The position numbers and the translations under genes were made by a program. Shown here piece after piece: positions 10,140 to 24,625 of a stretch of DNA of 24,625 bases. A model generated the notes under the pieces. It was not told the DNA's origin and searched no databases. It worked only from the letters and a program-made list of their open reading frames with translations. Origin of the DNA: a virus. The stretch spans positions 1 through 24,625 of the IMG/VR virus record IMGVR_UViG_3300037488_001934, one strand, 5' to 3'. Position 1 is the first letter of the stretch, and each line of letters opens with the position of its first letter.

Positions 10140-13100
10140 CTAGCCTCCTATTTCAGTTTCGAGCACGATGGCAGTGACTTCAACGGGCAACGGTTCAACA
10201 ACTTGCAGCGTTGCTTGACCATCGTAGGACCAAGAACCAGTGGCAGTAATTTCTACCATTCCGGTCATAACATCAGTGACTTCTCCGTGTGGGTCACTTG
10301 GCCACAGGGTCCCTCCGAGAGAACCACCTAAAAATGCAGCCGAGTCTTTAACGCGAACGTAGACGTGTGCAAGGTTTTTTTGGCGACTGTGCCCTGCCGC
10401 GTCAATTTGCATAGCGTGGGGTAGCGTATCAATCTGAGCAACAAAAGGTAAACCCGCGTGCGCTATTGTGCTTGCCGCGGTAGTGAGCGTGACCTCACCG
10501 TTAGCATCAACGATCTTTTGCGGTTGCACTTTGCCATCCACAAGCAGGGAGACCGTTTTGCCGATTAAGTGGCGCAAACCTTTGACCTTTGTAGCTGGCC
10601 CCGTAAAGGTCACTCCCGCGTCCACTTGGAAGCTATTTTGTCTTGAAGTGAACACTTGAGACGCAAAACGCTCAACACGCAGCACCCCGTCACGTTTTAC
10701 GACAACGTAAATTCGGTCTTCATCACCTTCCGTAATCACGGCAACGGATTCAAACGTGCCTGCGGTAGAATGTTGATGCCAGGCACCGACTTGCTCTTCC
10801 GGCACATAGGTGAGTCCAAACAGTTGCCCGTTGTTGCTAACGGTCCAAATTACGGGTTGGGGTGCTCTAGTCCAGGCCATGTCAACAAGGCGACGGTTTT
10901 CAAATAAGTGCGCTGCACGCAAGGATAGATTGCCTGGATAAAAGCTTTGCGCATCGGACCTAAAAGCAATCTCAAAAAGATGACCTCCACGTTCAGAGGC
11001 AAAAATTAGGTTGCTATTGATTAGCACCGGGTGCGCAAAGTTACTACCAACGTAACTTTGCGCGCGCACCGAAACAGACAACGGTGAGATTATGCCATTC
11101 CCCGTAGGGGTGACGCGATACTCGGCAGCATCGGTCAGCAAAAGCATTGACTCTAGCGAGATGATGTGGCGAATGGTGCTGCGAGAACGCGAGGCTACCG
11201 CTAGCTTGATACGATCCGATTCTAGCACTGGCAGCGAAAAAGAAAGGTCGCTTTCGGTGCCTGTTTTAGTAAACCAACAAGACTGCGTTTCTTCGGGGGT
11301 GCCTGCCCAGACACGACGCTGGTCGTGGTGGCCTACGGCGCTTGGTTTCGTCAGCGACGAATCAAGTATTGGTGGGGAGATACCAAGGTCCGGGTCAATG
11401 TTGTCATCAATAAACTTAGGCTCGGCGCACTGCCCAATGTAGCCAAACAAACCTGCAAGTTTGCGATACACGCGGTAGCGTTCGGCTCCAACTACGGCAG
11501 CCCAAGACAGCGTATTCTTTGAACCGTTTACGTCGAGGTTGCATAAGGCAAACCCTACGCTACTGGCAAGACTTTCGTTGTTATCTGCGGTTACCGATGT
11601 GACAACGTAAAAATTGTCTCGGTCCCCTGAAAGCTTAGCTTGCCGCACACGCCCGTTTGGAAGACTAGTTGAAGCTAGTGTTGTCCCCGTAATAAGGGCG
11701 CCGCTTTCTGGATCTTGCAGGGTAAAATCAAGAGGAGGTAATGCGAGTCTAACAATGTATTGGCCTGAAAGAAGTCCAGGCTCGCAGCCTGAGATATAGA
11801 CTTCCGTAACCCCTGACACGTACATGTGCGCGCTAACCGTTGAGACAGTAAATCCGCTACCGGTTTGGGCTAAACCCGTGATTTTAAGCCCTTCACCGTT
11901 AAACACGGTGATGTTGCCGTCTCCAAATACTGGGGGTTGCAACACAGGCTTAATAACAACCGTATTTAGCACCCACTGAGTGGCATCACTACGCCGAAGC
12001 TCGCTTGGAGAGTAGTTCTGATGGGCTAACGATACAATGTCATTCGACTGATCGTAGGTAAGGTCCATCAAATCCGCATTGGCAAACGCATGCGGGCACT
12101 CGTAAACCGCGTTAACAAGGGCGTAATTAGTGGGCGCACTGCTGTTGCTAAGAGCCAGAGCCGGACCAAACGGCGTTGCCGAAACTTTAAAAGTTCGCGT
12201 GGTTGTAGTGCTTGCGGCGTCAAGCACGAAGTAAACCGTGCCTGAAACTAATTCCGTAGGTAGCGTGCTTGCGGTAGATGAAAACGTAACCGGGTCACCA
12301 TGATGCAAAGTTAAGTTGGTTAGTTCGGCCTCCGTACCTGTACACGTTATTGAATTAGAACTAAAAGTTACCGTTAATACATTGCCTGGCTCTTTATACC
12401 AATAAGTGGAATTACTGATGCCAGGTATACTTTGGGCTTCTGTAGATTCTAGGTTTGCGATGGGCGGCACTACGCAATAATAGACACTATTGTTTATACT
12501 TGTAGTGGTGGCTTCGTGTAATACAAGGTCGCCTTTGTTAACACTGTGGTAAAGGGTTGTGAGGCCGGAGGCTCGGCCCGGATCCAGCGGTAAAAAAGAA
12601 GATTTTAAGTTGCTTAGGGCAAGAGCTTGAGTGCTAGCAATGTGGAAACTGTAGTCATCTATCTTTACCGCGTAGAATACTTTACCCGCATTACTTATTT
12701 CCACTCCAATGCTGGGGATCGGTGGTGTGTATGCAAGAATAGGTGACCGAGTGAGTGTAGGATAAGATAACTCAGAGTTTTTAAATACTACAGGGTCTCC
12801 CGTAACTAGTTGGTGCGGGTTTGCCGGATTAGATAACGCAGAATACGTTTGCAATATTGTTGGCTCGTCAATAAACGTAACCGGTGTAGGGCTACTAAAT
12901 ACGCTCGTAGATCCTGAGGCAACAGTTCCAAGTAGGCCAGTTAGAGCAGTGCCTCTAATTGCGTCAGCGGCAGAAGAAGCAATCTTAAATTGGGTAATAT
13001 TGTTGCTGCTCGGTATTGCAAAATAAACGCCTCCAGCTAATCGGGTAGCCCCAATAAAGCATTCCGTCCCGGAACTTGGGGTTACGTTTTTGTGCGTGAA

Positions 13101-14693
13101 GGTTATCTGTTCTCCCGTAATTAGGGCGTGGGGGCTTGTAGTTTCAAACTGGAGAGGCTGGCCAGAACCGGTAGGTAGGGTAATACTGTTAACAACAACC
13201 GATTTTTTATACACAAGAACGCTGGTAACAGGAAGCCAGCCCGTTGACATAGCGCAAGAATTCGGAGCAAGCCTGATAATTTTAACGGTTGCCCCAGCAC
13301 TACTAAAAGTAACTACTGCACCGTTAATCGGTGTTTTACTGCAAGTTATGCTAGTAGCAGTGGAAGATAGCACATAGAAAACGTCGCTAACGAGGACAGT
13401 GACACCGTCAACAACGGGAAAAGTTGCGGCTGTAAAATTAAAGGCTGTGCCAATTAACAGATCGGGAGGTATTGCAGCCGATATCGTCGATGTCGATGTC
13501 GATATAGTAACAGAGAGTTCTTTGCATATAGTAATGCCTGCCGAAATAGCATTTGAAAAAGATAAAGCCGTACCGCTAGCAGCGCGGGCACAACTAAAAC
13601 CTGTAGTGCTGCTGCCGCTGCTTAATACATAGTAAACATCGTAAATGGTAAGAGCCGGACTTGATGTTATTGAAGGTAGCACAGTGCCCGTCACATTAAA
13701 TTTAAAGGCTGTGCCCGCGGCTAGAGCCGTAGGTAACGAAACTCCAAAGTTAAGAGTGTTGCTGCTTGCAGTTGACGTTATATTGATAACGCCAATAACT
13801 TGGAAATCACTAGCTTGAGCAATAAAAATGTTTGTGGGGAATGTATTAGCTTCACTTACAACCGGAGACGTTAATGCGGTAGCGGCCTCGGAAGCAAAAG
13901 TTATGGTAGTTGGACTTGTCACTACACTGACGTAATAAAGTCTGTCTACAGCAGGCGTAACATTGGAAAAAACTGTTGCTGCAAGAACGCCAGAAAAAGT
14001 AAAGGCCTCTCCCGCTGATAATCCATGCGCCCCCGAAGTTGTTAAAGTTACAACCGTAGAAACGCTAGTGTTTGTAATATTCGGTCTGGAAAAAGTGACC
14101 GACTGAGCTTTGGTGGGGCTTACTACAGCTTTAAATTGCTGACCGCTTATAGAGATTAGAGTGGCAGCGCTAACATTGGCGGGTTTATATTGAAGTCCAT
14201 CCCCCAAAAACGAAGCATCGCTGCAAATTTGCGTAAAGGCTATCGATTGACCGTTCTTAATTGAATGCTGGTTAGTGGTAGCAAACGTGTCAAGTAAACT
14301 AGTACTAGCGTTCGTATATATCGTTTGCCTAGGTATATATCTTAAAGTTGGCTTTGCATAGAGCACAGGTGCGCCTTGGGAATAGCACCGTAGCCAACCT
14401 GTTAACGAAGACAAAGTTTCTGTTGCGGGTTTATTCCCAAGCGCGAGTACGAGTTCTTGGTTAGTTCCAAATTTGAAGGGGATTACGCGCACCTTACCTA
14501 GGGGGCTAGTATTGGGCGTAGTGTCAACGTGCTGTGTGCCTGGTCGCGTGCGTGCGCTCCCCTGCGGGCGCACAATAAAGTTGGAGCACTTTGCGACTGC
14601 GGCCTGGACCCGCGGATCATTTGCCCGACCAAACATTGTGGCCACAATCTCACCGCTGACCAGCGATTGCTGCAACGTGCGTTGGGTCGGCAT
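10140..14693 (-). CDS. Tail nozzle protein (gp12-like / tail tubular protein B) expanded with repeated beta modules
   Basis: A 1517-aa protein, roughly twice the usual size for this family. Residues 1-90 have the usual N-terminus: QQSLVSGEIVATMFGR, then a CSNFIVRPQGSARTRPGT segment and a short beta unit with FKFGTNQELVLALG. The canonical sequence resumes only at about residue 868 (HAFANADLMDLTYDQSND, then HQNYSPSELRR) and continues through RYRVYRK (about 1072-1078), FIDDNIDPD (1094-1102), HHDQRRVWAG (1122-1131) and a propeller-like C-terminal half. These are recognisable landmarks of podovirus tail nozzle/stabilisation proteins. Between them, about 205-865 is Ser/Thr/Val-rich and built of degenerate repeats (separate entry). 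Expected role: the distal tail tube below the gp11-like adaptor, with the extra modules projecting outward (inference). The gene lies three bases after the fusion gene's stop; its ribosome binding site is weak. Confidence 0.87.
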   Translation of the reverse strand: MPTQRTLQQSLVSGEIVATMFGRANDPRVQAAVAKCSNFIVRPQGSARTRPGTQHVDTTPNTSPLGKVRVIPFKFGTNQELVLALGNKPATETLSSLTGWLRCYSQGAPVLYAKPTLRYIPRQTIYTNASTSLLDTFATTNQHSIKNGQSIAFTQICSDASFLGDGLQYKPANVSAATLISISGQQFKAVVSPTKAQSVTFSRPNITNTSVSTVVTLTTSGAHGLSAGEAFTFSGVLAATVFSNVTPAVDRLYYVSVVTSPTTITFASEAATALTSPVVSEANTFPTNIFIAQASDFQVIGVINITSTASSNTLNFGVSLPTALAAGTAFKFNVTGTVLPSITSSPALTIYDVYYVLSSGSSTTGFSCARAASGTALSFSNAISAGITICKELSVTISTSTSTISAAIPPDLLIGTAFNFTAATFPVVDGVTVLVSDVFYVLSSTATSITCSKTPINGAVVTFSSAGATVKIIRLAPNSCAMSTGWLPVTSVLVYKKSVVVNSITLPTGSGQPLQFETTSPHALITGEQITFTHKNVTPSSGTECFIGATRLAGGVYFAIPSSNNITQFKIASSAADAIRGTALTGLLGTVASGSTSVFSSPTPVTFIDEPTILQTYSALSNPANPHQLVTGDPVVFKNSELSYPTLTRSPILAYTPPIPSIGVEISNAGKVFYAVKIDDYSFHIASTQALALSNLKSSFLPLDPGRASGLTTLYHSVNKGDLVLHEATTTSINNSVYYCVVPPIANLESTEAQSIPGISNSTYWYKEPGNVLTVTFSSNSITCTGTEAELTNLTLHHGDPVTFSSTASTLPTELVSGTVYFVLDAASTTTTRTFKVSATPFGPALALSNSSAPTNYALVNAVYECPHAFANADLMDLTYDQSNDIVSLAHQNYSPSELRRSDATQWVLNTVVIKPVLQPPVFGDGNITVFNGEGLKITGLAQTGSGFTVSTVSAHMYVSGVTEVYISGCEPGLLSGQYIVRLALPPLDFTLQDPESGALITGTTLASTSLPNGRVRQAKLSGDRDNFYVVTSVTADNNESLASSVGFALCNLDVNGSKNTLSWAAVVGAERYRVYRKLAGLFGYIGQCAEPKFIDDNIDPDLGISPPILDSSLTKPSAVGHHDQRRVWAGTPEETQSCWFTKTGTESDLSFSLPVLESDRIKLAVASRSRSTIRHIISLESMLLLTDAAEYRVTPTGNGIISPLSVSVRAQSYVGSNFAHPVLINSNLIFASERGGHLFEIAFRSDAQSFYPGNLSLRAAHLFENRRLVDMAWTRAPQPVIWTVSNNGQLFGLTYVPEEQVGAWHQHSTAGTFESVAVITEGDEDRIYVVVKRDGVLRVERFASQVFTSRQNSFQVDAGVTFTGPATKVKGLRHLIGKTVSLLVDGKVQPQKIVDANGEVTLTTAASTIAHAGLPFVAQIDTLPHAMQIDAAGHSRQKNLAHVYVRVKDSAAFLGGSLGGTLWPSDPHGEVTDVMTGMVEITATGSWSYDGQATLQVVEPLPVEVTAIVLETEIGG
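10144..10149 (-). promoter_or_regulatory. Strong ribosome binding site (AGGAGG) of gp14-like gene
   Basis: On the minus strand AGGAGG stands six bases upstream of the ATG at 10137, immediately before the upstream gene's TAG stop. It fixes the start of the gp14-like gene and is the best Shine-Dalgarno match in the window. Confidence 0.85.
12099..14081 (-). repeat. Degenerate protein-level beta-module repeats inside the tail nozzle
   Basis: Between residues about 205 and 865 of the tail nozzle a pattern recurs: a short beta start, 'L-x-x-G-x-x-F-x-F' (GEAFTFSG 228-235, GTAFKFNVTG 327-336, GTAFNFTA 415-422, GEQITFTH 527-534, GDPVVFKN 632-639, GDPVTFSS 799-806), a gap of about 15-40 residues, then 'YYV' or equivalent (LYYVSV 252, VYYVLSS 353, VFYVLSS 438, VYFAIPSS 556, VFYAVKID 672, VYFVLDAA 820), then 'TFxxA' with a small Ala/Ser-rich end. 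At least six copies are visible. The DNA is not obviously repetitive, so the duplication is old. The pattern resembles segments of phage tail proteins labelled 'E1 FCCH-like'; that match is an inference. Confidence 0.72.
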
Positions 14694-14696
14694 AAA

Positions 14697-17669
14697 TTAT
14701 CTGCGGTTAGAAATCCAAGGATTGATCGGTTTGACAGGGGTTCTCTGCTGCGTGGCATCCGTGTCGGCGGCTTGAGCCACGGTAAGCATCAGCATCTTCA
14801 TAAACTGTTCCGCAACGGTGCGCCCAACGTCTCCCTTTACTAGCGGCCCTGCTAGCAACGCAGCCAGCTGGTAGCTAACGGCAAGCCGGAACAACGGGGG
14901 AAACTCGGTCGCATCGGTGACGCGAGCCTGGTAGCGCAGGTTTGCGGACGCTTGGTCCGTGTAGATGACGCGGTAACCTGCGTCATCACGTTCCAATACA
15001 TACGGCTGCGGCACGTAGCCAGTGGGTTCTACCTGCCTGCGCGGTTGCACTTGAGGTGACGGCGCAGGAGCAAGGAATGATGCCCCGGCAATGTTGTCGT
15101 CGGTAGCGTCGTTGGCCGTCACGGCGGTCGGCATCAGCATGTCGAGCGGCACCGCGTAGGCAAAGTCCCACTCGGTGCGCGTGTTCGTCACTTCGATGAG
15201 CGTTGCGCGCCTGCGAGCAAAGGTCCAAGGCCGCAGTGCTAGCACCATATCGCGCGCTGCGGGGTAGAAACGCGCACAGTGCAAGGATTGCGGACTGCCG
15301 TCTGGAGGGTTGATCGAGGTGATCTGCCCCGCATCGCCAACGTGCGACAGCGCAATGTTGCAAAGGTCCACCGCAGAAGCTTGCACCTTCTCATCAAAAC
15401 CGCAAAAGCTGAGCGTGGCATCCAGCAGCGCAAGAAACGAATCCGCCTTGCGTAGGCCGTGAACAACTTCACCAACGCCATTGAGGTGCAAAGGGTCATA
15501 GCTGAGCTTTAGGGATACCGAATCGTCCACAAGGTGCGTTGCCGCAAAACCGTCGCGTGCAGCCAAGTCATCAATGGCAGCGTTGACTAACTTTTTGCCG
15601 TCACCTTTAAAAGTAAACAGCTCATAGTTAGGAACTATACCCTCAAACTCATACGGTGAATGCGCGATGTTGGCATGCACCACTGGGATTTGTGAAGCCG
15701 TTGGGTAGAGGGATAATCCTGCGTCTTGAATTACCTTGCGAAGCCACGCGTAAAAAGCAGGGAGGTTATCTTTAAAAGTCTCACGCCCTTCGGAACTCAG
15801 TGCGTCCGCTTGACCTTGGTCGCCGACGATTCCAAGAATCTTAAGTTTGCGCCCGTTGGCGCGAGCAGTTTGCGCAGCTACAGCAATCGTTTCGATCAAC
15901 TTGCGTAAACGCGCAGCGCAACCCGTAGGGTTACCAGGAGTCCAATCAAGATACTTGTTGTGGTCCCACCAGCCGATTTTGCCGGGGAAGCCAAAAAAGT
16001 TTTGTCTTTGTCTAAGTATCTGCCCCGCGCTGTTGATCCCTAAATGGATCATGCTGACTTTGCGTCCTAATGCCCCAGCTACGCGGTATGCAAAAGGCAG
16101 CATTTGGCCGAAATGCGTATCTTTACTAAAGAGGCCATAACTGTATTCGTTGTAGACCTTGTCGGCTGTGCCATTGCCGCCTAAGATTTTGCTTCCAAGA
16201 ACATTATTGTGAATCACACCTTGGCTGGGGTTGTAAAAAGAAATTGCCGCAGGACCCGCAGGCAGCATGTCATTTGACGGGTAGCGAAAACCTTCAAGCA
16301 AAGCGTGCGGGTTGCTGTTGAAATGCCCTAGCCAAGCTTGAAATTTTAGAGTGCCTGAAGGAGTAATAGGCGTCCAGCTTGCACTAGTTAAAGTAATTGT
16401 GTCGACGGTATTTGACGCTATGCGACCAATACTGTTGTTGCAGCGAATAAAACCCCCCACTAATTGGTTGGTAATAAGTGTGTTATCCGCTGTTATTGCC
16501 GTTGTCGCTGTTGCCGAACTAAGCGTGCCGAAGGCTCCAGCTCCAGAAATACCTTCAAAAAGCGTGAACGGTAAAAACAAACCGAGGTCTTCGTAGCTCG
16601 TAATGTTTGCGGGGAGGGTAAATCCTGGCACCGTTGTGGGCGTCACGACTCCTGTGGGGTAGGGGATATTTGGCCCCGAGGAATCCGTATTCAGTACTTC
16701 AGGCTGATACGGCGTAAGAACGTCAATGTTTTCGTAAGTCTTCCAGCTCTCATAATCATCCCGCGTCAGGTAGCAGTTTTGAGCCGACGTCGTTGCCGCT
16801 GGCTCGCCCGCAGTCCCAAACCAAGAAACGGTAACACAGTTGCCAATTGTAAAGGTGGTAACGGTGTTTATAACATCAGTTGTACTACCTGCATGATTAC
16901 GCAACGTTGACAGCCGCAAAGTGCTGGGTGTAGCAGATTCAATTATACCAATACCTAGATTGGGTATTAAAACTGCTTGCTCAAGTATCCTGTCTACACC
17001 AATGGCAAATAGTCGAGGGGTAAACAAACCAGCAGTGTTAGCTATTAAAACCCCTTTTAGATTTAGCGTCCACGTAATAGTAGAAACTGTAGCGTTGGAA
17101 GGGACTGTCCCGACCCAAGCGATAGTAAGCACATTACCCGTATTTGCCGTAATTGTGCCGGTGTAAGTAGTAGTAGTAGTAGTAGTAGTAGTATCAACAA
17201 CTGTAACTACGATACCGACAAGTTCAGTGGTGGGCCACGCAGGCGACGGTCCGCCGAGAGTAAGCGTATTATTACTAGCAAACGCAAACGAATTGGCCGA
17301 TGCCGTATACTGTGAGGTTTTTAAGTTTTGTGCCGTGGTCAGAACGTATCCGCCAGTGTTTGAGACCACTGTGCCGTAACCTACACTTGGTGCGCTAGCC
17401 AAGCCTATGCGCAAATTAGCCCCCGGCCATTCACCGTTGTTTAACGGTAGCGCTACAAAAATCTTGCTGACCCTAGACCCAGTTGTACCTGTGGGACCAG
17501 TGATGTAAGTTGCAACTAAGGGTCCACCGGCAAGGCCTCGCCGGTCAAGCTCGGGCATTGCCGCAACTCCTTCAGTCAACAAGCCCCAAGGGCGTGCAAC
17601 TGACTGCCCCCACCAGACGATAGCGTAGTCGTAATCGTCCGACAATTGCGTAGCAAAGCGTCGGGGCAT
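14697..17669 (-). CDS. Fusion: SGNH/SASA-type esterase domain + gp11-like tail adaptor (tail tubular protein A)
   Basis: A 990-aa protein in one uninterrupted frame. Residues about 12-750 look like an SGNH/SASA-type hydrolase with large insertions: AIVWWGQSVARPWG near the N-terminus (GQS 21-23, candidate nucleophile Ser23), IHLGINSAG (541-549), VGDQGQADA (615-623, like the QGExDA block of sialate O-acetylesterases) and YDPLHLNGVGE (724-734) with Asp725/His728 as the DxxH pair. Two Ser/Thr-rich beta segments (about 95-200 and 380-445) are inserted. Residues about 762-990 look like a podovirus gp11-type adaptor: AVDLCNIALSHVGDAGQI, LRPWTFARRRATL, VIYTDQASANLRYQARVTD, FPPLFRLAVSYQLAALLAGPL. Expected role: the adaptor sits under the portal; the esterase would deacetylate a surface polysaccharide (inference). 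A complete adaptor is usually about 200 aa on its own. The ATG at 17669 follows a weak GGA. Confidence 0.83.
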   Translation of the reverse strand: MPRRFATQLSDDYDYAIVWWGQSVARPWGLLTEGVAAMPELDRRGLAGGPLVATYITGPTGTTGSRVSKIFVALPLNNGEWPGANLRIGLASAPSVGYGTVVSNTGGYVLTTAQNLKTSQYTASANSFAFASNNTLTLGGPSPAWPTTELVGIVVTVVDTTTTTTTTTYTGTITANTGNVLTIAWVGTVPSNATVSTITWTLNLKGVLIANTAGLFTPRLFAIGVDRILEQAVLIPNLGIGIIESATPSTLRLSTLRNHAGSTTDVINTVTTFTIGNCVTVSWFGTAGEPAATTSAQNCYLTRDDYESWKTYENIDVLTPYQPEVLNTDSSGPNIPYPTGVVTPTTVPGFTLPANITSYEDLGLFLPFTLFEGISGAGAFGTLSSATATTAITADNTLITNQLVGGFIRCNNSIGRIASNTVDTITLTSASWTPITPSGTLKFQAWLGHFNSNPHALLEGFRYPSNDMLPAGPAAISFYNPSQGVIHNNVLGSKILGGNGTADKVYNEYSYGLFSKDTHFGQMLPFAYRVAGALGRKVSMIHLGINSAGQILRQRQNFFGFPGKIGWWDHNKYLDWTPGNPTGCAARLRKLIETIAVAAQTARANGRKLKILGIVGDQGQADALSSEGRETFKDNLPAFYAWLRKVIQDAGLSLYPTASQIPVVHANIAHSPYEFEGIVPNYELFTFKGDGKKLVNAAIDDLAARDGFAATHLVDDSVSLKLSYDPLHLNGVGEVVHGLRKADSFLALLDATLSFCGFDEKVQASAVDLCNIALSHVGDAGQITSINPPDGSPQSLHCARFYPAARDMVLALRPWTFARRRATLIEVTNTRTEWDFAYAVPLDMLMPTAVTANDATDDNIAGASFLAPAPSPQVQPRRQVEPTGYVPQPYVLERDDAGYRVIYTDQASANLRYQARVTDATEFPPLFRLAVSYQLAALLAGPLVKGDVGRTVAEQFMKMLMLTVAQAADTDATQQRTPVKPINPWISNRR
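17166..17192 (-). repeat. (ACT)9 trinucleotide microsatellite encoding Thr9
   Basis: Nine perfect AGT units on the plus strand read as nine identical ACT codons on the minus strand, giving Thr160-Thr168 of the esterase-adaptor fusion. The identical codons, rather than mixed Thr codons, point to replication slippage. The unit is three bases, so copy-number change would lengthen or shorten a beta-segment linker without a frameshift. Confidence 0.97.
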
Positions 17670-17680
17670 GTTTTATCCGT

Positions 17681-17890
17681 TTAGCCGAAAAGGTCTTCCT
17701 GCGGAGCGTCATCACGTTTTACATCCGCACGCACATCGCCCTTCACTTTTAAAGGTGCGGGTGGTGGGCCTGCGGGAACGTCGTTGTGGACACGCTGAAG
17801 GTTAGTGTCCGGCGGACCTTCATATTCAAACACGGCACCCTTTTCACGGTAGCCGTTAATGTAGACATCTTGCTTGGCGCGAACTTTCAT
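17681..17890 (-). CDS. Small conserved-looking protein, 69 aa, function unknown
   Basis: A 69-aa ORF opening MKVRAKQDVYINGYREKGAVFEYEG, an arrangement (short beta start 'MKVRA', a Tyr/Gly 'surface' turn, then 'G..FEY') seen in small phage head-region proteins of unknown role. The C-terminal half is Pro-, Lys- and Asp-rich, probably disordered, and ends EDLFG. No catalytic motif or membrane segment. It lies between the second cement candidate (3 bases upstream) and the tail fusion gene (11 bases downstream). A GGTGGAG sequence before the ATG at 17890 overlaps the upstream gene's end and supports this start. Confidence 0.72.
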   Translation of the reverse strand: MKVRAKQDVYINGYREKGAVFEYEGPPDTNLQRVHNDVPAGPPPAPLKVKGDVRADVKRDDAPQEDLFG

Positions 17891-17893
17891 ACG

Positions 17894-18541
17894 TTAAACT
17901 CCACCGGCAGCAACGGCAAAACCGGAAGTGTGGTGCGTGGTTGGACCTTGCGAATGTGGCAGCAAGAAAGCGTTAATCCCACCAGCGTTAAAATTTGTAG
18001 GTGCTGTATTATCGATAACATTAGCTATGTACATCCCTAAAGACAAAAACCTTCGCCCCTTAACACTTGAATCTGCTTGTTGCGGAATAGGTAGTTCAAT
18101 CACAGTCCCTTTGGTCAGGTGTGAAATCAATAGATCGCGGCTTTGTACAAGACAACGACCTTTAGTGTCGTTAAGAACCTGTAGGTTCAAAAAATTCTCC
18201 ATTGCTCCCGCCATTGTGGTCGCTGAAGCTATATCTGCCTCAGTGGGGGGAAAGACGTTTAAATCATAAGCAACTACCGCTAAGTTAAACTTATACTTGG
18301 TATCTGTCGCACCCGTAGCTGTAAAAGTTGTGCTGATTTCAAACCGCGCGGTTAAAGGGTTGCCTTGCCCCCAATCCGTAGGGACTTGTAGGTCGATTAC
18401 AGTGTTTAAATTTTCCGATGGGAGTGCGTAGAACACAGGAACCGCATAGATAATACCACCAGTAATTAAAATTGAATGCAGGGAGCTAGGCAGTGTCGGC
18501 TTCTTATCTAAACACACGGTCAAAAAAGAATCGCGTATCAT
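17894..18541 (-). CDS. Probable capsid cement/decoration protein, Bbp16-like candidate
   Basis: A 215-aa beta-rich protein with no signal peptide or membrane helix. Its middle has the order expected of small capsid cement proteins of the Bbp16 type: 'VIDLQVPTDWGQGNPLTARFEI', a 'FTATG' turn, a variable stretch with a long helix (about residues 90-125), then 'GTVIELPIP', 'GRRFLSLGMYIA' and a beta finish ending FAVAAGGV. The match is by overall pattern only. Position after the major capsid protein and before the tail genes fits an accessory head protein. An AAAGG ribosome binding site six bases before the ATG at 18541 supports the start. A 9-bp hairpin lies just upstream and could lower its expression relative to the capsid gene. 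Alternative: another minor head or head-tail protein. Confidence 0.5.
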   Translation of the reverse strand: MIRDSFLTVCLDKKPTLPSSLHSILITGGIIYAVPVFYALPSENLNTVIDLQVPTDWGQGNPLTARFEISTTFTATGATDTKYKFNLAVVAYDLNVFPPTEADIASATTMAGAMENFLNLQVLNDTKGRCLVQSRDLLISHLTKGTVIELPIPQQADSSVKGRRFLSLGMYIANVIDNTAPTNFNAGGINAFLLPHSQGPTTHHTSGFAVAAGGV

Positions 18542-18557
18542 GTTGAACCTTTGGAAA

Positions 18558-18582
18558 GTGCGCCGCGTATTAGGCGGCGCAC
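18558..18582 (-). terminator. GC-rich hairpin between the two capsid-accessory genes (terminator or processing site)
   Basis: A perfect 9-bp inverted repeat, GTGCGCCGC / GCGGCGCAC, with a 7-base loop occupies most of the 46-base gap after the 345-aa gene's TGA. On the minus strand it is followed only by TTT and then the AAAGG ribosome binding site of the next gene, so the U-run is short. Placement right after the highly expressed capsid genes recalls the partial terminator after T7 gene 10. It could equally protect the upstream message or be an RNA-processing site. Confidence 0.6.
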
Positions 18583-18587
18583 AAATT

Positions 18588-19625
18588 TCAGATTGTGTAA
18601 CCTGAAGTATAAGCCCTTACGCCACGCCCGCCCACAGCGGAGTCTACGTCCATAGTAAACTTTGCCGAAAAGGAACCCGCACTTAGGGGCAAACTCGGCA
18701 CGATGCGAGCACCGATGTATTGCTGTCCTACATTAGGACCCATAGCTCGCGGGTTGAAATCGACAAAAATTTGCGGCCCTGCAAGGACCAACATGTTATC
18801 TGCCACTTTTACAGTGATGGGGGTTGTAATACCTGATGGCGTGCCTAGGTCAAGGAAAATGCCTGCCAGAGCATTTACGTAACTTGTAGCGACTTTAAAA
18901 CCTGCCGTTGTTGGGAGAGTAACGTAATAAACTGCTCCGCTAATAAGTGGGCTAATAGTACCACCTGTAAAAGTAAAAACAATGGCTGTGCCTGTTTCAT
19001 ACTGGTCTGCGGCAGCTAAAACCACTCCTGCTGTTTCAACACCAACACTACTATCTATGCTAATTTGCCTAGGCACGTTAACTGGGATAGGCCCCGAACT
19101 GCCTGCGACTCGCACTGATTTAGTTAACGCTGCGTCCTCTGCCGTGATGATTTGAAACTCAAGCGTAGGCAGCGTAGTTAGATTTAACGAAGAAGTCGTA
19201 GCTGTTACTATAGCTGTAGCAGTCGTCAACGAGTTAGCAAATGTAGATGCCAGTGCTATGTTACCTGAGTCCGCTCTAACAACGTAATAGGTAGTACCCC
19301 CTGTAAAGTTTCCAAGAACGGGGTCTAATGCGGTAGTTCGCAAAACAACAGGACTTCCTCCTGTAAGACCGTGACTACCAAACACAAAAGCACTGCCGCT
19401 AACCACTGTAGTAGCAATTGCGACGTCATTTTTACCGGGGACCACCGTGGCTTCGGTATTGAACACCAAAGACATCGTGGAGCCAGCTCCAAAGTCTTGA
19501 TTGGCTTGACGATCAATTGATGCCCCGGATATCACACTAGGGGCAGTTAAGTTTCCGGTAGGGGTGAACGCTACAGACATGGGCGCCGCAGGGGCCGCCA
19601 AAATTAGGTTAATGTCACTTAGCAT
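18588..19625 (-). CDS. Capsid-proximal decoration protein with two inserted beta modules (Bbp16-like candidate)
   Basis: A 345-aa beta-rich protein directly downstream of the major capsid gene. I read it as one domain interrupted twice. Host segments: SDINLILAAPAAP (3-15), FGAGSTMSLVFNTEA (45-59), LEFQIITAEDAALT (155-168) and the C-terminal VDFNPRAMGPNVGQQYIGARIVPS with AKFTMDVDSA; this order resembles small capsid cement proteins such as BPP-1 Bbp16. Inserts: about 75-150 (HGLTGGSPVVL, then GGTTYYVVRAD) and about 198-270 (YETGTAIVFTFTG, then SGAVYYVTLPTTAGFKVAT), which follow the same pattern as the repeats in the tail nozzle. Role: capsid stabilisation or surface decoration (inference). It has a strong AAGGAG site seven bases before the ATG. 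No catalytic motif. Confidence 0.6.
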   Translation of the reverse strand: MLSDINLILAAPAAPMSVAFTPTGNLTAPSVISGASIDRQANQDFGAGSTMSLVFNTEATVVPGKNDVAIATTVVSGSAFVFGSHGLTGGSPVVLRTTALDPVLGNFTGGTTYYVVRADSGNIALASTFANSLTTATAIVTATTSSLNLTTLPTLEFQIITAEDAALTKSVRVAGSSGPIPVNVPRQISIDSSVGVETAGVVLAAADQYETGTAIVFTFTGGTISPLISGAVYYVTLPTTAGFKVATSYVNALAGIFLDLGTPSGITTPITVKVADNMLVLAGPQIFVDFNPRAMGPNVGQQYIGARIVPSLPLSAGSFSAKFTMDVDSAVGGRGVRAYTSGYTI

Positions 19626-19632
19626 AGTTATT

Positions 19633-19638
19633 CTCCTT
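19633..19638 (-). promoter_or_regulatory. Strong ribosome binding site (AAGGAG) of the 345-aa decoration gene
   Basis: AAGGAG on the minus strand, seven bases upstream of the ATG at 19625, immediately after the small hairpin that overlaps the capsid gene's stop. It suggests high expression, consistent with a stoichiometric capsid component. Confidence 0.8.
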
Positions 19639-19640
19639 GT

Positions 19641-19655
19641 TGAGCCTTAGGCTCA
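19641..19655 (-). other. Small hairpin overlapping the capsid gene stop codon
   Basis: The minus strand reads TGAGCC-TAA-GGCTCA, a perfect 6-bp stem with a 3-base loop. Its first three bases are the TGA stop of the major capsid gene, and the loop TAA is a second in-frame stop. No U-run follows; instead the AAGGAG of the next gene comes directly after. It may help stop ribosomes or protect the capsid message, but it is too small to call a terminator. Confidence 0.5.
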
Positions 19656-20666
19656 GACAATTTTGGCCTCGGTGTTAAGCATACGATCTACTGGGATTAG
19701 CGGGATGCCGAGGAAAGACACCTGCTGGAAAGGCTTGCCGAACTGGGTCAGACCCTGCTCGATAGTGACTACTTGTTGACTCTTGTCGAGGCCAATCTTC
19801 ATCAGACAGGCAATGACCGTGCGGTTGCACAAGAACACTCGCGTTCCCATGCCGTCTGGAACCAACTGCGTGGCATCAGACATCGCATAGATAATGTTGG
19901 TTGCTGCGGTTACGGCTTGGGTGCCCGTACGCGCGCGCAACTCGGCCACGTTGATGTTGGCGATGCGAACAATTCGTCTCCAGTCACGCAGCACAAGGCC
20001 AGCGTTCATCACATACTGCGACACGTATGCCGCCATGCGATTGCCGTTGGAGAACTGAATGATCTGCCTGCCGTGGTCAACATTCTGTAGGCCACCCTCG
20101 CTACCAAGCGGGTAGATGCCAAAGAAGTCTTCGCCAAAGTTGACCAGATAGATCGAGGTGTTGGTCGTGCCTGCCGCGCCACCGCAGTCAATCACGTTGC
20201 CTGAAGCCAGGCTGCTAAAGCGAGTAGCAAGACCGTTGAACTCTTTTGAGTCAGCCTTGGCGTTGCCATACATGAACAACTGCACATATTTCTGCCACAT
20301 CGCCTCGATGAAGGCTGCACCTTCAGACGCGCGGTAGAAAGCTTCCTGGCCGTTGAGCTTCGCTTCGGCGCAGTCAACTTCGCTCCAAGCTTCGATAATC
20401 GACATGCCTTCGGTAAGTTGCGCCGTGGCGCTCTTACTTGGCGTGACACCATCGTTGTAGTCGCGTAGGTAGGCTGTCGGGAGCGCGGTGCGCACCGAAA
20501 ACTGGTGGCCCGTGGGTAGGTTACCTGGCTGTAGCCCAAGGTATCCCTGAATCTCCTTCATGCCCCGCTGTGCGAGAAGTTCAACCACCGGGGCGCCACG
20601 GCCCTTCGGGTCAAGATACTTGAGCATGTCGGCCAGAGTGAGTCGCGTAGTCGGAAGTGCTGCCAT
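19653..20666 (-). CDS. Major capsid protein (BPP-1 Bbp17-like, HK97 fold expected)
   Basis: A 337-aa protein whose sequence matches the major capsid class of BPP-1-like podoviruses: start LTLADMLKYLDPKG, then a 'YRDYNDGVTPSKS'-like stretch (LRDYNDGVTPSKSATAQL, about residues 68-85), an E-loop/spine region with EVDCAEAKLNGQEAFYR, then TNTSIYLVNFGEDFFGIYPLG (about 168-188), GLQNVDHGRQ, VLRDWRRIVRIANIN (about 225-239) and a C-terminal FLGIPLIPVDRML beta segment. It forms the icosahedral shell (family knowledge). It is of usual length for this group, with no N-terminal prohead-protease propeptide evident, consistent with a separate scaffold gene upstream. AGAGGA lies eight bases before the ATG at 20666. 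The stop is followed two codons later by a second in-frame stop inside a small hairpin. Confidence 0.92.
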   Translation of the reverse strand: MAALPTTRLTLADMLKYLDPKGRGAPVVELLAQRGMKEIQGYLGLQPGNLPTGHQFSVRTALPTAYLRDYNDGVTPSKSATAQLTEGMSIIEAWSEVDCAEAKLNGQEAFYRASEGAAFIEAMWQKYVQLFMYGNAKADSKEFNGLATRFSSLASGNVIDCGGAAGTTNTSIYLVNFGEDFFGIYPLGSEGGLQNVDHGRQIIQFSNGNRMAAYVSQYVMNAGLVLRDWRRIVRIANINVAELRARTGTQAVTAATNIIYAMSDATQLVPDGMGTRVFLCNRTVIACLMKIGLDKSQQVVTIEQGLTQFGKPFQQVSFLGIPLIPVDRMLNTEAKIV

Positions 20667-20674
20667 CGTTATAT

Positions 20675-20680
20675 TCCTCT
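20675..20680 (-). promoter_or_regulatory. Ribosome binding site (AGAGGA) of the major capsid gene
   Basis: AGAGGA on the minus strand, eight bases upstream of the ATG at 20666, in the 18-base gap after the scaffold gene. It supports the chosen start and efficient translation of the capsid protein. Confidence 0.75.
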
Positions 20681-20684
20681 AAGG

Positions 20685-21380
20685 TTATCTGTAGGTATCA
20701 GCGAGCTTCTCCAACGGATCACGCGTGTCACGCATGTTCGGTGAAGAGCCTTTTGATACCGAATCGTCACTGACGGTCTTACCGACATGCGCAAAAAAGC
20801 GGATTATCTCCGCACGATTGCCCATGCCAGTTTGCACAAGTAGCGTGCGCAGCGAGTCATCACCGAACACATCGATGGCTTTTTCGGCAAGTTGCAGGTT
20901 GACCTGCAATTTTGCTTCATCGCCACCGCTCAGTTCGGAGTCCTTCATCGTAGCTTCGCGCCATGCCGTAAGCGTCTCAGTGAAATAACTCGACTGCTGC
21001 GCTTCAAGGGCGGGAACTAGACTATTGATAACTTTCTGCGCGGACTCGTTGCTCAGATTCAACTCACGCGCGATGCCTTCAAATTGCTGCATTACTCCCA
21101 TACCGAAAGCTGCGCTTTCGTTTGGGGAGCTCAATGCATACTTTTCGGGGGATCCTTGCGGAGTTTCTGGGGCCTTGGATTCTCCACCCTTGGCCCCCGT
21201 CTGAGACGCTTCCTGCGTCTTGCCTACCAATGTCCCAGTGGTTGGCGCGGGCGTGCTTGGCACCGCCGCAAGAGCATTGCTGCTTGCGACTGGTGTTGGC
21301 GTGCCCGCCGCCACTGGAGGCGATTGGTTTGTCGTCGTTGTGCCTTGAGTTGTGTTTCCGGCTATTACGTTCGACGTCAT
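20685..21380 (-). CDS. Capsid scaffolding protein
   Basis: A 231-aa protein starting MTSNVIAGNTTQG. Residues about 1-85 are Thr/Pro/Gln/Ser-rich and look disordered; the rest is acidic and helical: AFGMGVMQQFEGIARELNLS, then Gln-rich ALEAQQSSYFTETLTAWREATMKD, and a C-terminal block AIDVFGDDSLRTLLVQTGMG followed by EIIRFFAHVGKTVSDD. That block is a recognisable feature of podovirus scaffold/capsid-assembly proteins, which are removed from the procapsid before packaging. It stands immediately before the major capsid gene. I chose ATG 21380 rather than an upstream in-frame codon at 21413: it overlaps the previous gene's stop as ATGA and has CAGGAA four bases before it. No protease motif was seen. 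Confidence 0.8.
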   Translation of the reverse strand: MTSNVIAGNTTQGTTTTNQSPPVAAGTPTPVASSNALAAVPSTPAPTTGTLVGKTQEASQTGAKGGESKAPETPQGSPEKYALSSPNESAAFGMGVMQQFEGIARELNLSNESAQKVINSLVPALEAQQSSYFTETLTAWREATMKDSELSGGDEAKLQVNLQLAEKAIDVFGDDSLRTLLVQTGMGNRAEIIRFFAHVGKTVSDDSVSKGSSPNMRDTRDPLEKLADTYR

Positions 21381-21727
21381 CGTTTTCCTGCTGGCACAGC
21401 CTGCTGCGGGCAAAGCTGTTCTTCGGTCATCTTTACGTAAAGATCAGGGCAGTGCTGCCGCAGCAACTTCTGCATCCTTAATCCGTATTCGCGTTCTCCC
21501 GCCATGCGCCCCATCTCGGCAGCGTTTGGCGAGAAACACGATAAGTCCATTCCGGCTTGCTCCAAGAGCAACCACATAAACCGACGCCCACGTTCGACTG
21601 ACATCAGCCAACGGAAGTCCCCTGCTTCTTGTTCCAGCTTGGTGCGAGCAAGATCTGTGCGCTCTTGGCGCACCCGTTCGCGAGCGCGAAAATCGGTGGG
21701 GTCGGAAATACCGGTGTTCACTTGCAC
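21377..21727 (-). CDS. Bbp19-like phage protein, 116 aa
   Basis: A small helical protein with a Glu/Arg-rich N-terminus and a core, about residues 38-100, with the Bbp19 family signature: 'DFRWLMSVERGRRFMWLLLEQAG', then 'CFSPNAAEMGRMAGEREYGLRMQKLLRQHCPDLYVKM'. The biochemical role of this family is not known to me; it regularly neighbours scaffold and capsid genes in BPP-1-like podoviruses. The frame has no ATG near its N-terminus. GTG 21727 is one start; GTG 21721 is another (114 aa), overlapping the stop of an eight-codon ATG micro-ORF (21744-21719, MSVLALCK) as GTGA. The frame is also the large terminase frame, separated from it only by the TAA at 21752-21754. The stop overlaps the scaffold start (ATGA). 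Confidence 0.75.
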   Translation of the reverse strand: MQVNTGISDPTDFRARERVRQERTDLARTKLEQEAGDFRWLMSVERGRRFMWLLLEQAGMDLSCFSPNAAEMGRMAGEREYGLRMQKLLRQHCPDLYVKMTEEQLCPQQAVPAGKR

Positions 21728-21751
21728 AAAGCTAGCACAGACATAGGGACC

Positions 21752-23119
21752 TTATGGGGCCCTAAGGTTGTGCCGCAAGCGATTGTAGCTTGACAAGCTA
21801 GAAGCTTTAGCAAAACGCTCCTGATACTGCATCATCTGGCGAGCTATTTTTGAGGCTCGCAGCACTGGGGCGGCGAAGGTAAGAGCTAGAGCGTCCGCAA
21901 GATCCGGGGAGGCCCCATCCTTAAGCCGCTTCTTGATGTCGTCTTTTGACTCCAACGCGCGGCGGTTCTGCGCGTCAAAAAAGTAGCACGGTGTTGCTAG
22001 CTCTTGCTTTAGCGCAATGTCGTTGGGGATTGCACCGCCAGCGCGCAGCCACTCGCGCATCAACCACCACATCTCCGTGCGCTTGTTCACATACAGCGTA
22101 GGCTCGGATGACTTGCCGCCAAAGGCAACTTCAAACACATTAAAACCAAGCTGCCGCAAGCGATCAATCACGCCAGAACCTGCGCCAGCATCAATGAATA
22201 CCGCGTCGGGATGCCAGTCGTTAATCAGGCTCGCCGTGCGCGTAGCAAGCTCCATGTTGTCTATGCCACGCATCGCGATGGCAGGTAGCATCTGCAAACC
22301 CTGGCGGCGCACAATCGTGCTGCGGTCATTGCCAAATCGCGCAGGATCAACGCCTATGATGCGCGGAGAATCCGCAAAGTCAGTCTCAGTGTAGTCTCGG
22401 TGGCTAGCGTTTTCGGCATCTGCCAACGAGATCAATTGATCGTCACCGGCAGCGTTAAAGTCGCACAAGTATTCGCGGGCAAAAGCCGTCTCAGTCATTA
22501 CGTCTGGGCGCCGCAAACGTGCAATTTCTACTGGGTCAATGGCTCCGTCCGTTTCGTAAACCGTGTAGACTGCCGCGTGCCAAAGCGGATCCCGCTTGGC
22601 GTAGAAAAACAACTGGCTGAACAGATTGATGCCGTTGGGCGTGCCAATAAAAATTGCCCACCCAAGACGATCCGATAGCGCAGGTTGCACAATCTCATCC
22701 CAAACCATCGGCTCAATCTGCGCAACCTCGTCGATAACCACACCGTCAAGACGCATACCGCGCATTGCGTCTGGGTTGTTGGCACCAAACAAACGGATCA
22801 TCGAACCGTTGTGCGCGAACGTCACCGAAAGGTCCGCGTTGTTAATGTGGATTGTGCCAGGCACATTCGTCAAAGGCTGCAACTTTTGTAGCAACCGACG
22901 CCAGACCACACTCTCAGCTTGCTTCAGCAAAGGTGCAAGATAGACAAAGACACCGAGGTCAAGTTCACAAGCTAGCGCGGCTTCGATCAGCTCCATGATC
23001 GCCAACTCGGTCTTGCCCGCTCGACGGTGCAACGCATAAACGCTGAACCGCTTGCGCCCGAGATGACACTCGCGCTGCCACCGTCTTGGTTGGTAGGAAA
23101 TCGATAGTTGACGACTCAT
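21752..23119 (-). CDS. terL: Terminase large subunit (packaging ATPase and nuclease)
   Basis: A 455-aa protein with both domains of a large terminase. ATPase: Walker A HRRAGKT (31-37), Walker B VVIDE (127-131, Asp130 and catalytic Glu131), coupling motif FIGTPNG (157-163). Nuclease (RNase H-like): IIGVDPARFGNDRSTI (254-269, Asp258), VFIDAGAGSGVIDRL (307-321, Asp310), then SPDLADALAL near the C-terminus supplying a third acidic residue. It drives DNA into the prohead and cuts concatemers, docking on the portal (family knowledge). Length is slightly short but complete. The ATG at 23119 overlaps the preceding stop (ATGA), suggesting coupling with the small-terminase candidate. The nuclease core with 'FGGKS' resembles terminases of podoviruses with HK97-like heads. 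Confidence 0.95.
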   Translation of the reverse strand: MSRQLSISYQPRRWQRECHLGRKRFSVYALHRRAGKTELAIMELIEAALACELDLGVFVYLAPLLKQAESVVWRRLLQKLQPLTNVPGTIHINNADLSVTFAHNGSMIRLFGANNPDAMRGMRLDGVVIDEVAQIEPMVWDEIVQPALSDRLGWAIFIGTPNGINLFSQLFFYAKRDPLWHAAVYTVYETDGAIDPVEIARLRRPDVMTETAFAREYLCDFNAAGDDQLISLADAENASHRDYTETDFADSPRIIGVDPARFGNDRSTIVRRQGLQMLPAIAMRGIDNMELATRTASLINDWHPDAVFIDAGAGSGVIDRLRQLGFNVFEVAFGGKSSEPTLYVNKRTEMWWLMREWLRAGGAIPNDIALKQELATPCYFFDAQNRRALESKDDIKKRLKDGASPDLADALALTFAAPVLRASKIARQMMQYQERFAKASSLSSYNRLRHNLRAP

Positions 23120-23535
23120 TTAAAAATGTCTCTCGTCTCTTCAACTCGGGGTATTTCAATCGATGGCTCTTCAATACTGATTACGCGCGCGTCTGCACGC
23201 TTGGGTACTCCCGTGTCGATAACAATTTGAATATGCCCGTCTTGTTCAACTTTTAGTTCTGTCGGCACGGGGCGCGTCAAGCGTTCCAAAATTAACTTCG
23301 CGCTCTGTAGGTCACCGTGTTCGGCTTGCAGCAATAATACTTTGACTACGCGCCAGATGGCTTCGTGTAAATCGTAGCCTTCTAGCTCGGCTTTCCGTAA
23401 CGCTAGGTCATAGATGCAAGGGATGCGATTCTTGTCATGGCCTTCCTTGAAACGCGTATTTACTGCGCCCGGTTTTTGCCAGTGCTTGTTGCCTTTTTTA
23501 AATCCGGGTTTTCTTAGCTCGCGTCCATTAGTCAT
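23116..23535 (-). CDS. Terminase small subunit candidate
   Basis: A 139-aa protein. The basic N-terminus (ELRKPGFKKGNKHWQKPGAVN) recalls the 'FkkGNkhW..' start of many phage DNA-packaging proteins; the central part is helical (DLALRKAELEGYDLHEAIW, about residues 43-61), followed by VVKVLLLQAEHGDLQSAKLILERLTRPVP (about 63-91), a 'GD..AA.lil.Rl' pattern common in small terminase subunits. The C-terminal third is acidic and probably contacts the large subunit (inference). Expected role: recognises phage DNA and stimulates the large subunit. It overlaps the upstream helix-turn-helix gene by 8 bases and the large terminase by 4 bases, which supports a packaging function. Shine-Dalgarno is weak, so it may depend on coupling. 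Alternative: the upstream 91-aa protein is the DNA-recognition partner. Confidence 0.65.
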   Translation of the reverse strand: MTNGRELRKPGFKKGNKHWQKPGAVNTRFKEGHDKNRIPCIYDLALRKAELEGYDLHEAIWRVVKVLLLQAEHGDLQSAKLILERLTRPVPTELKVEQDGHIQIVIDTGVPKRADARVISIEEPSIEIPRVEETRDIFK

Positions 23536-23803
23536 AAATGCTTACGCTTTTTTGGGGTAGTTGACCCCGAACTTCCCCCGAGATAATTCGGCGAACACTG
23601 CTCAAGCTGATGTCGTGCCCCAAGTATTTTAGTAGTATCCAAATGCGTCGCCTACCGAGGCCTTTCGTATGGTGAGCATGAACTAGGTTGACAAGTTCGT
23701 CACTGATCGTTGAGCACTGGTGTGATGCACCCACACGATAACGCTGACCGTTTTTTTCAACGTAGTCAATCTTATGGTCGTTGTCGCCCGGTAAGGAAAC
23801 CAT
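23528..23803 (-). CDS. Small helix-turn-helix protein, 91 aa, coupled to the terminase genes
   Basis: I chose ATG 23803 because it overlaps the preceding gene's stop by one base (TGATG) and has GGAG ten bases before it; a start at 23911 would lie deep inside the upstream gene. The N-terminal part (about residues 1-28) is charged. Residues about 32-78 look like a helix-turn-helix: ISDELVNLVHAHHTKGLGRRRIW, then LKYLGHDISLSSVRRIISGE, where 'iS..sV..IisG' is the usual recognition-helix pattern. It may bind phage packaging DNA together with the next gene or regulate late genes; sequence alone does not decide. It ends TAA inside the start of the small-terminase candidate. Confidence 0.65.
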   Translation of the reverse strand: MVSLPGDNDHKIDYVEKNGQRYRVGASHQCSTISDELVNLVHAHHTKGLGRRRIWILLKYLGHDISLSSVRRIISGEVRGQLPQKSVSIYD

Positions 23804-24625
23804 CAGCTCAGGTCTCCGACCATCCACTCCCAGTCGGGTTGATTCCGCATCTGGGAGTAAAGGACGTTGCGCAAGCGGATTGCCTTTTGGTTTCCTGTAG
23901 CCGAAGCGCACAGGATTGCCCCCGAATACCAGGTGAGACCGATGCCGCCGTAGATCATGTCGGCATCACCCTCCAACGTCGTTTTTGCTCCTGCTCTCGG
24001 CAAAGTGAAGTAAGCAGACGGATTCGGATCACCTCCTAGATTGGACTTGGCGTAGGTCACAACCACCGCGCCCCAAGTTGGATGTTCGATGATGCCTTGA
24101 TCGACCACTGTGTTTGCAATGCTGACTGCGTGCGCGAGATACTTGCTCATCTTATCATACTGGCTGGTGCGCTGCCAGATCATCGCCCATGCCGTCAACC
24201 CATCAACCAAGAATGATTCCTGCCACGGGATCCATGCGTCGTGGCCGAGGTCTGGGTTGGTGGTGTTTCTCAGAGGATTCTTGCCCTCGTATTTCGAGAT
24301 GGCTTGCGTGACTTTTACTGGTCCATCGACCTTCCACGTTGGTTGACTTTCGACGATGGCGAACATGCGGTCAGCCAATGTCTCTAGGTGCGCTCGCTGC
24401 GTCTCGTTCGCCGATATCCACCAGTGCGCCCACTCCTGCAATAGTCGGCCAGAGGCTCGCGGTGCTTCAATGCTGCCATCGCCCTGGCCACCGTGTCGCG
24501 TGTCGCGGCATTCAATGGCGAGCAGAAAGTCCAGCTCGTCCTTCGAGATGAAATCACCAACGATGGCAGCAGCGGTCGGCGCGTAAAGGTTGCCGCGATG
24601 CTGCGGATCAAGTCCACCGCGTTCG
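23803..24625 (-). CDS. Unidentified protein, 5'-truncated by window edge (at least 273 aa)
   Basis: The frame is open from the right edge to the TGA at 23803-23805. A TTG at 24441 has been a possible start, but 61 further codons upstream (reading ...GNLYAPTAAAIVGDF..., IEAPRASGRLLQEW) continue the same compositional style, so the gene very likely begins outside. The visible part is Trp- and Ala-rich with alternating helices: EWAHWWISANETQRAHLETLADRM, AWIPWQESFLVDGLTAWAMIW, LAHAVSIANTVVDQGI, GIGLTWYSGAILCASATGN. The regular Trp/Gly spacing suggests an alpha/alpha-barrel-type fold. I do not recognise the family. Position immediately before the terminase genes in the same transcript allows a virion role (for example receptor binding), but that is only a guess. 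It does not look like a portal. Confidence 0.6.
   Translation of the reverse strand, partial: ERGGLDPQHRGNLYAPTAAAIVGDFISKDELDFLLAIECRDTRHGGQGDGSIEAPRASGRLLQEWAHWWISANETQRAHLETLADRMFAIVESQPTWKVDGPVKVTQAISKYEGKNPLRNTTNPDLGHDAWIPWQESFLVDGLTAWAMIWQRTSQYDKMSKYLAHAVSIANTVVDQGIIEHPTWGAVVVTYAKSNLGGDPNPSAYFTLPRAGAKTTLEGDADMIYGGIGLTWYSGAILCASATGNQKAIRLRNVLYSQMRNQPDWEWMVGDLS

What the first reader, a model, noticed from the sequence alone, without database searches (positions are those of the whole stretch)
14697..17669. Esterase-like domain fused to a head-tail adaptor (gp11-like) protein
One unbroken frame carries SGNH/SASA-style blocks (GQS 21-23, QGQADA 618-623, DPLH 725-728) and, at about 762-990, a full-length gp11-type adaptor. 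Such adaptors are normally stand-alone proteins of about 200 aa that sit in a ring under the portal. Joining about 750 residues to the N-terminus would place up to twelve copies of a putative carbohydrate esterase around the tail top, an unusual location for a receptor-modifying enzyme, which is normally on a fiber or spike. It could be a collar-borne deacetylase for capsule or O-antigen.
Basis: partly seen in the sequence, partly recalled or inferred. Interest (0 to 1): 0.78.

Follow-up and report, generated by a model that had tools for sequence, protein, structure and literature searches.

The report
Esterase-like domain fused to phage adaptor
In an uncultured short-tailed phage, the ring protein that joins head to tail is made as one chain with a large esterase-like sugar-enzyme domain, and a second phage family carries an unrelated, partly sugar-binding module at the same place, so this ring seems to serve as a plug-in platform for host-surface tools.

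Summary
In detail: one unbroken 990-aa ORF at 14697-17669, on the minus strand. Residues 764-989 are a complete BPP-1/epsilon15-type head-tail adaptor (phrog_394, E=2e-37). Residues 1-760 are a divergent SASA/CE6-like SGNH-hydrolase domain, split after its first strand by a ~490-aa insertion. A profile of 35 viral SASA domains hits it at p=6.5e-9 (best of 3000 shuffles 5.9 bits, against 21.9). An alignment-guided AF2 model matches CE6 esterases (2apj, Z 21) and a cyanophage tailspike (Z 20). Ser23, Asp725 and His728 fall in the triad columns, but the GQSN, GGT and WxQGE motifs are altered and the Pfam cut-off is missed, so catalysis is open. Both flanking genes are the adaptor's usual neighbours, which makes an assembly chimera unlikely, although no second contig spans the junctions. 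Of 225 adaptor ORFs examined, all are stand-alone except this one and eight others from one separate clade. Those carry an unrelated ~950-aa N-terminal module (some with CBM5/12 or laminin-G matches); three have tandem adaptors. Adaptor N-terminal fusion has therefore arisen at least twice. The next gene, the nozzle, also carries a ~750-aa insertion. Most likely: a ring-borne glycan-binding or deacetylating adhesin.

The parts
14697..17669 (-). Whole fusion gene, 990 aa
17601..17669 (-). Residues 1-23: first strand of the SGNH core plus block I GQS (putative nucleophile Ser23, codon 17601-17603)
16125..17600 (-). Residues ~24-515: large insertion splitting the SGNH core, rich in Thr/Ser/Asn with beta-type repeats; no family match; AF2 confidence mostly low
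15435..16124 (-). Residues ~516-745: rest of the SGNH/SASA-like core (W576, QGQAD 618-622, DPLH 725-728)
15486..15497 (-). DPLH 725-728, putative catalytic Asp725 and His728
14700..15380 (-). Residues 764-990: BPP-1 Bbp14 / epsilon15 gp11-type head-tail adaptor
17681..17890 (-). 69-aa gene whose homologues lie directly upstream of stand-alone adaptors; marks the upstream edge of the added module
10140..14693 (-). Nozzle gene (phrog_376), 1517 aa, directly downstream of the adaptor as in relatives
12105..14360 (-). Residues ~112-863 of the nozzle: ~750-aa beta-repeat insertion absent from BPP-1 Bbp13
19653..20666 (-). Major capsid protein, epsilon15 gp7 family; places the phage in the epsilon15/BPP-1 group

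Best explanation
An epsilon15/BPP-1-type podovirus has gained a host-surface module in the frame of its adaptor gene. The gene makes one chain: an N-terminal SASA/CE6-like SGNH domain, interrupted by a ~490-aa beta-rich insertion (possibly a binding module), followed by the normal ring-forming adaptor. The C-terminal part would sit in the (normally 12-fold) ring under the portal. The N-terminal part would hang outside the tail at the collar, where it binds acetylated host glycan and possibly removes O-acetyl groups through Ser23-Asp725-His728. Shown by sequence: the fusion, the adaptor family and the SGNH-like core. Inferred: ring copy number, outward display, glycan substrate, catalysis.
For: Unbroken frame with coding signal only in that frame. 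Adaptor family match and synteny MCP - small genes - adaptor - nozzle as in BPP-1. Viral SASA profile p=6.5e-9. All three MAFFT modes place S23, W576, Q618-G619, D725 and H728 in conserved columns although the protein carries a ~490-aa insertion. AF2 core (residues 11-23 and ~580-755) pLDDT mostly 65-91; Foldseek top hits are CE6/SASA esterases (2apj E=3.6e-7, 1zmb, NanS), VIA Z 21.0, 20.1 and 18.9, plus phage Pan3 tailspike Z 20.1 and N4 tail chain Z 12.7. Independent fusions of another N-terminal module to adaptors in a separate clade, with CBM5/12 in two of ten members and laminin-G in one. SGNH domains are common on phage receptor-binding proteins and some are active esterases (PMC13123978).
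Against: No independent contig covers 14697-17669. The Pfam SASA cut-off is not met. Three motifs near the active site are altered. The AF2 model was guided by an alignment of SASA proteins, so it is not independent of the sequence match; the single-sequence model failed (pLDDT 33). No homologue of residues 1-760 was found anywhere searched.
Confidence: 0.66

Rival explanations
1. Non-catalytic adhesin: the SGNH domain has degenerated and only binds glycan, tethering the virion; the insertion and the altered motifs reflect binding.
For: GQSN to GQSV, GGT to NSA, WxQGE to GDQGQ; DEV gp53 has a carbohydrate-esterase-like domain but no LPS hydrolase activity was detected in virions (PMC10925440); the other fusion family has carbohydrate-binding matches and no hydrolase match.
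Against: All three triad residues are kept, which a pure binder need not keep. The comparison set was found with seeds that contain GQSN and W-x-Q/H-G-E, so the changes look more exceptional than they may be.
Confidence: 0.3
2. Assembly chimera or lost stop: esterase and adaptor are separate genes joined by error.
For: No second contig spans the gene; GC shifts from ~0.51 to ~0.61 at the junction.
Against: It would need two artificial joins, because both outer neighbours are the native ones. The frame is open across both joins. The same GC contrast occurs between core and inserted parts of the nozzle. The same type of fusion recurs, conserved, in several contigs of another clade.
Confidence: 0.06
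3. Both forms are made: full-length protein plus a short adaptor from an internal start (GTG at residue 762), so only some ring positions carry the module.
For: The adaptor homologues start at the equivalent position and a GTG codon lies there.
Against: The only purine-rich stretch (GAGAAGG) runs into the GTG, leaving no normal ribosome-site spacing (read by eye).
Confidence: 0.12

Closest known systems
Bordetella phage BPP-1 Bbp14 / epsilon15 gp11 adaptor (phrog_394); solved relative: connector protein of PDB 8ck1
   Same: Full-length adaptor domain, gene order, next to the nozzle gene
   Different: Those are stand-alone proteins of about 200-250 aa; here 763 residues precede the adaptor
CE6/SASA esterases: At4g34215 (2apj), C. 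acetobutylicum acetylxylan esterase (1zmb), NanS (3pt5), SIAE (8f9q)
   Same: Predicted fold, order of blocks, Ser-Asp-His positions
   Different: Below the Pfam cut-off; ~490-aa insertion after block I; GQSN, GGT and WxQGE motifs altered
Cyanopodophage Pan3 tailspike (9vyh), phage N4 tail chain (9lc0), DEV gp53
   Same: SGNH or esterase-like domain carried on a tail appendage of a short-tailed phage
   Different: There the domain is on a separate spike or fibre that docks to the tail (for DEV: PMC10925440); here it is covalently part of the adaptor
KP32 / KP34 tail tubular protein A (T7 gp11-like) reported as dual-function
   Same: Enzymatic role claimed for an adaptor
   Different: There the activity was reported for the adaptor itself, with no added domain
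L091/L283/L284/L286/L291/L292/L094 fusion family (found here, uncultured)
   Same: Large N-terminal module fused to a phrog_394 adaptor, placed before the nozzle where the contig shows it
   Different: Module unrelated by sequence; separate adaptor clade; three members have two adaptor domains in tandem

Membership tests
phrog_394 head-tail adaptor (Bbp14/gp11) | Full-length profile match | tested here: met
   E=2.3e-37, model 2-188 of 190
phrog_394 head-tail adaptor (Bbp14/gp11) | Genomic place between the MCP/small-gene block and the nozzle | tested here: met
phrog_394 head-tail adaptor (Bbp14/gp11) | Stand-alone protein of about 200-250 aa (usual, not strictly defining) | tested here: not met
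   990 aa; 216 of 225 adaptor ORFs are at most 300 aa
phrog_394 head-tail adaptor (Bbp14/gp11) | Forms a ring under the portal | not testable with these tools
   needs cryo-EM
SASA / CE6 esterase (PF03629) | Pfam gathering score | tested here: not met
   15.3 bits against 24.8; 18.8 for an excised core. Called SASA-like, not filed as a member
SASA / CE6 esterase (PF03629) | Ser, Asp and His in the triad columns | tested here: met
   S23, D725, H728
SASA / CE6 esterase (PF03629) | GQSN, GGT and WxQGE motifs | tested here: not met
   GQSV, NSA, GDQGQ; comparison set partly chosen by these motifs
SASA / CE6 esterase (PF03629) | SGNH fold | tested here: inconclusive
   Z 21 to 2apj, but the model was guided by SASA homologues; single-sequence model failed
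SASA / CE6 esterase (PF03629) | Deacetylase activity | not testable with these tools
   needs assay
Phage tail spike/fibre | Separate trimeric protein with an N-terminal tail anchor | tested here: inconclusive
   same chain as the adaptor; oligomeric state unknown

The most novel reading that the evidence does not exclude
The N-terminus of the epsilon15-type adaptor is a recurrent plug-in site: at least two phage lineages independently display large glycan-directed modules straight from the ring, one of them an esterase, doing the work of docked fibres. In the lineage with tandem adaptor domains, six double-domain chains would fill twelve places and present six modules, matching the six-fold nozzle.
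Probability: 0.4. Interest if true: 0.75.

Novelty: new variant of a known kind. Interest (0 to 1): 0.62.

Why it matters
Podovirus host-contact proteins are thought of as separate fibres or spikes docked on the adaptor/nozzle interface. A covalent fusion to the ring fixes copy number and geometry and removes the docking step. Finding it in two separate clades with unrelated modules, and with tandem adaptors in one, makes the idea of the adaptor as a modular display platform testable by cryo-EM, proteomics and simple esterase assays.

Tried and rejected
Homologues of residues 1-760 by exact-peptide scans of IMG/VR and GTDB contigs, tblastn of 50,697 phage records at E<=10 and six-frame search of 399 genomes (no positive control): none. 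A two-motif DNA pattern in IMG/VR gave five hits, none relevant by inspection. Plasmid records hold only adaptor-domain matches. Single-sequence AF2 of the whole protein: pLDDT 33, discarded. A mixed P0001/SASA alignment was too divergent to seed a scan. PF03629 in 50 records of related phages: none, so a SASA domain is not usual in this group. A set of randomised sequence variants was generated as possible search seeds but not used. hhalign against five SASA sequences gave low probability (5-10%) although the register is right. The fusion family's relatives L287-L289 have the N-terminal module but no adaptor that my profile recognises.

Full report
What is there. The finding's coordinates hold one ORF on the minus strand, 17669 down to 14697, 990 aa. 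The window is a 24,625-base virus record from an epsilon15/BPP-1-type podovirus: MCP GP7 family, E=2.8e-83. Its gene order matches BPP-1, from large terminase through protease, MCP, small genes, adaptor, nozzle and internal virion proteins, except that no portal gene was identified in its usual place.

Adaptor half. Residues 764-989 match phrog_394 at E=2.3e-37 over nearly the whole profile. They are 40-46% identical to adaptors of BPP-1, Limnohabitans phage DC33 and Manatee Spring phages, and related to the solved 8ck1 connector. It is the only adaptor in the window. The upstream neighbour (17681-17890) has homologues immediately upstream of stand-alone adaptors in other contigs, and the downstream neighbour is the nozzle. 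So the extra 763 residues sit, in frame, exactly between two native neighbours. That argues strongly against a chimera, although no other contig covers the gene: L087-L089 confirm only 17906-24625 at 90-99% identity.

Esterase-like half. The only family match for residues 1-760 in Pfam, PHROGs or NCBIfam is Pfam SASA, below its cut-off. To test this further I collected natural SASA proteins from bacterial genomes, used them to fetch 37 viral-contig SASA loci, and built a profile from 35 domains. P0001 scores 21.9 bits (p=6.5e-9 as one test), against at most 5.9 in 3000 shuffles. In three MAFFT modes, without removing the insertion, GQS 21-23, W576, QG 618-619, D725 and H728 fall in the conserved columns. 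Spacing from QG[E/Q] to DxxH is near normal; spacing from GQS to QG[E/Q] is some 480 residues too long, so the core is split after its first strand by a large insertion. Three motifs differ: V24 follows GQS, N546-S547-A548 stands for GGT, and G616-D-Q-G-Q620 for W-x-Q-G-E. The scan seeds contained GQSN and W-x-Q/H-G-E, so the invariance of those residues in the comparison set is partly by construction.

Fold. The single-sequence model was useless. With the 35 viral SASA domains as alignment, AF2 gave a confident core (most blocks of residues ~580-755 at pLDDT 66-91, and 11-20 at 83) and an unresolved insertion. Foldseek and VIA-align put it with CE6/SASA esterases (2apj Z 21.0; 1zmb 20.1; NanS 18.9; SIAE 17.8), the Pan3 tailspike (Z 20.1) and, lower, an N4 tail chain (Z 12.7). 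The matches span model residues 12-750, so the strand before Ser23 and the part after the insertion are folded together. Caution: the alignment carries the fold into the model, so this supports compatibility and is not independent proof. I could not measure the triad distances.

How common. I checked adaptor ORFs from IMG/VR, GTDB contigs, prophages and phage records: 225 carry the domain, median length 225 aa, and 9 exceed 300 aa. Besides this window, the eight long ones (seven distinct) form one family: L091, L094, L283, L284/L290, L286, L291, L292. They share a ~950-aa N-terminal module unrelated by sequence to ours; Pfam finds CBM5/12 in two of ten aligned members and laminin-G in one. L094, L291 and L292 have two adaptor domains in tandem. 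In a tree of 73 adaptor domains that family is a clade with support 1.0, on the other side of a 0.998 branch from the window's domain, which groups with 44 stand-alone BPP-1-type adaptors at 0.77. So the two fusions are most simply independent.

A wider pattern in the same genome. The next gene, the nozzle, has ~750 extra residues between positions 111 and 864 compared with BPP-1 Bbp13, of lower GC than the conserved parts. By eye these are beta-repeats that also occur in P0007 (18588-19625), a larger protein in the place of the usual small capsid genes. This phage seems to have added surface modules to several ring or shell proteins.

Mechanism. In T7 the adaptor and the nozzle together form the fibre dock, and the loop between adaptor helices 1 and 2 faces the nozzle (PMC6702177), so by analogy the N-terminus should point toward the portal side; in SU10 the adaptor ring holds the long fibres (PMC9509320). 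An N-terminal module would therefore be displayed at the collar, where fibres normally dock. SGNH domains on Klebsiella prophage receptor-binding proteins include active esterases (PMC13123978), and a Pectobacterium phage tail spike deacetylates O-polysaccharide (PMC6989608, title and abstract only); but DEV, with a carbohydrate-esterase-like collar fibre, showed no LPS hydrolase activity (PMC10925440). I therefore favour a ring-displayed glycan-binding module with probable, unproven deacetylase activity.

Verdict. The location is less alien than claimed, catalysis is open, and the more interesting point is that large N-terminal fusion to this adaptor has happened at least twice.

Noticed in passing
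21377-23119: No portal gene identified between the large terminase (21752-23119) and the Bbp19-like gene (21377-21727), where BPP-1 has it; it must lie outside this fragment.
   Followed up: partly
23803-24624; L088:153-1500: A large ORF upstream of the small-terminase-like gene runs off the window and continues in a near-identical contig; the part in the window has no Pfam or PHROG match above chance.
   Followed up: partly
12105-14360: ~750-aa beta-repeat insertion in the nozzle protein at a place where BPP-1 has almost none.
   Followed up: partly
18588-19625: 345-aa protein with beta-repeats like those of the nozzle insertion, in the place of the usual small capsid genes; weak PHROG tail-fibre match.
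   Followed up: partly
L094:2797-7089; L291:5716-9915; L292:5974-10170: Two adaptor domains in tandem at the end of one chain, after a ~950-aa N-terminal module.
   Followed up: yes
L287:5602-9321; L288:5572-8451; L289:5602-9327: Relatives of that N-terminal module without an adaptor domain recognisable by my profile.
   Followed up: partly
3-6635: Very large (at least 2211 aa) polyvalent internal protein with a TQPLQD repeat near its start and a Pfam LPD22 match.
   Followed up: no
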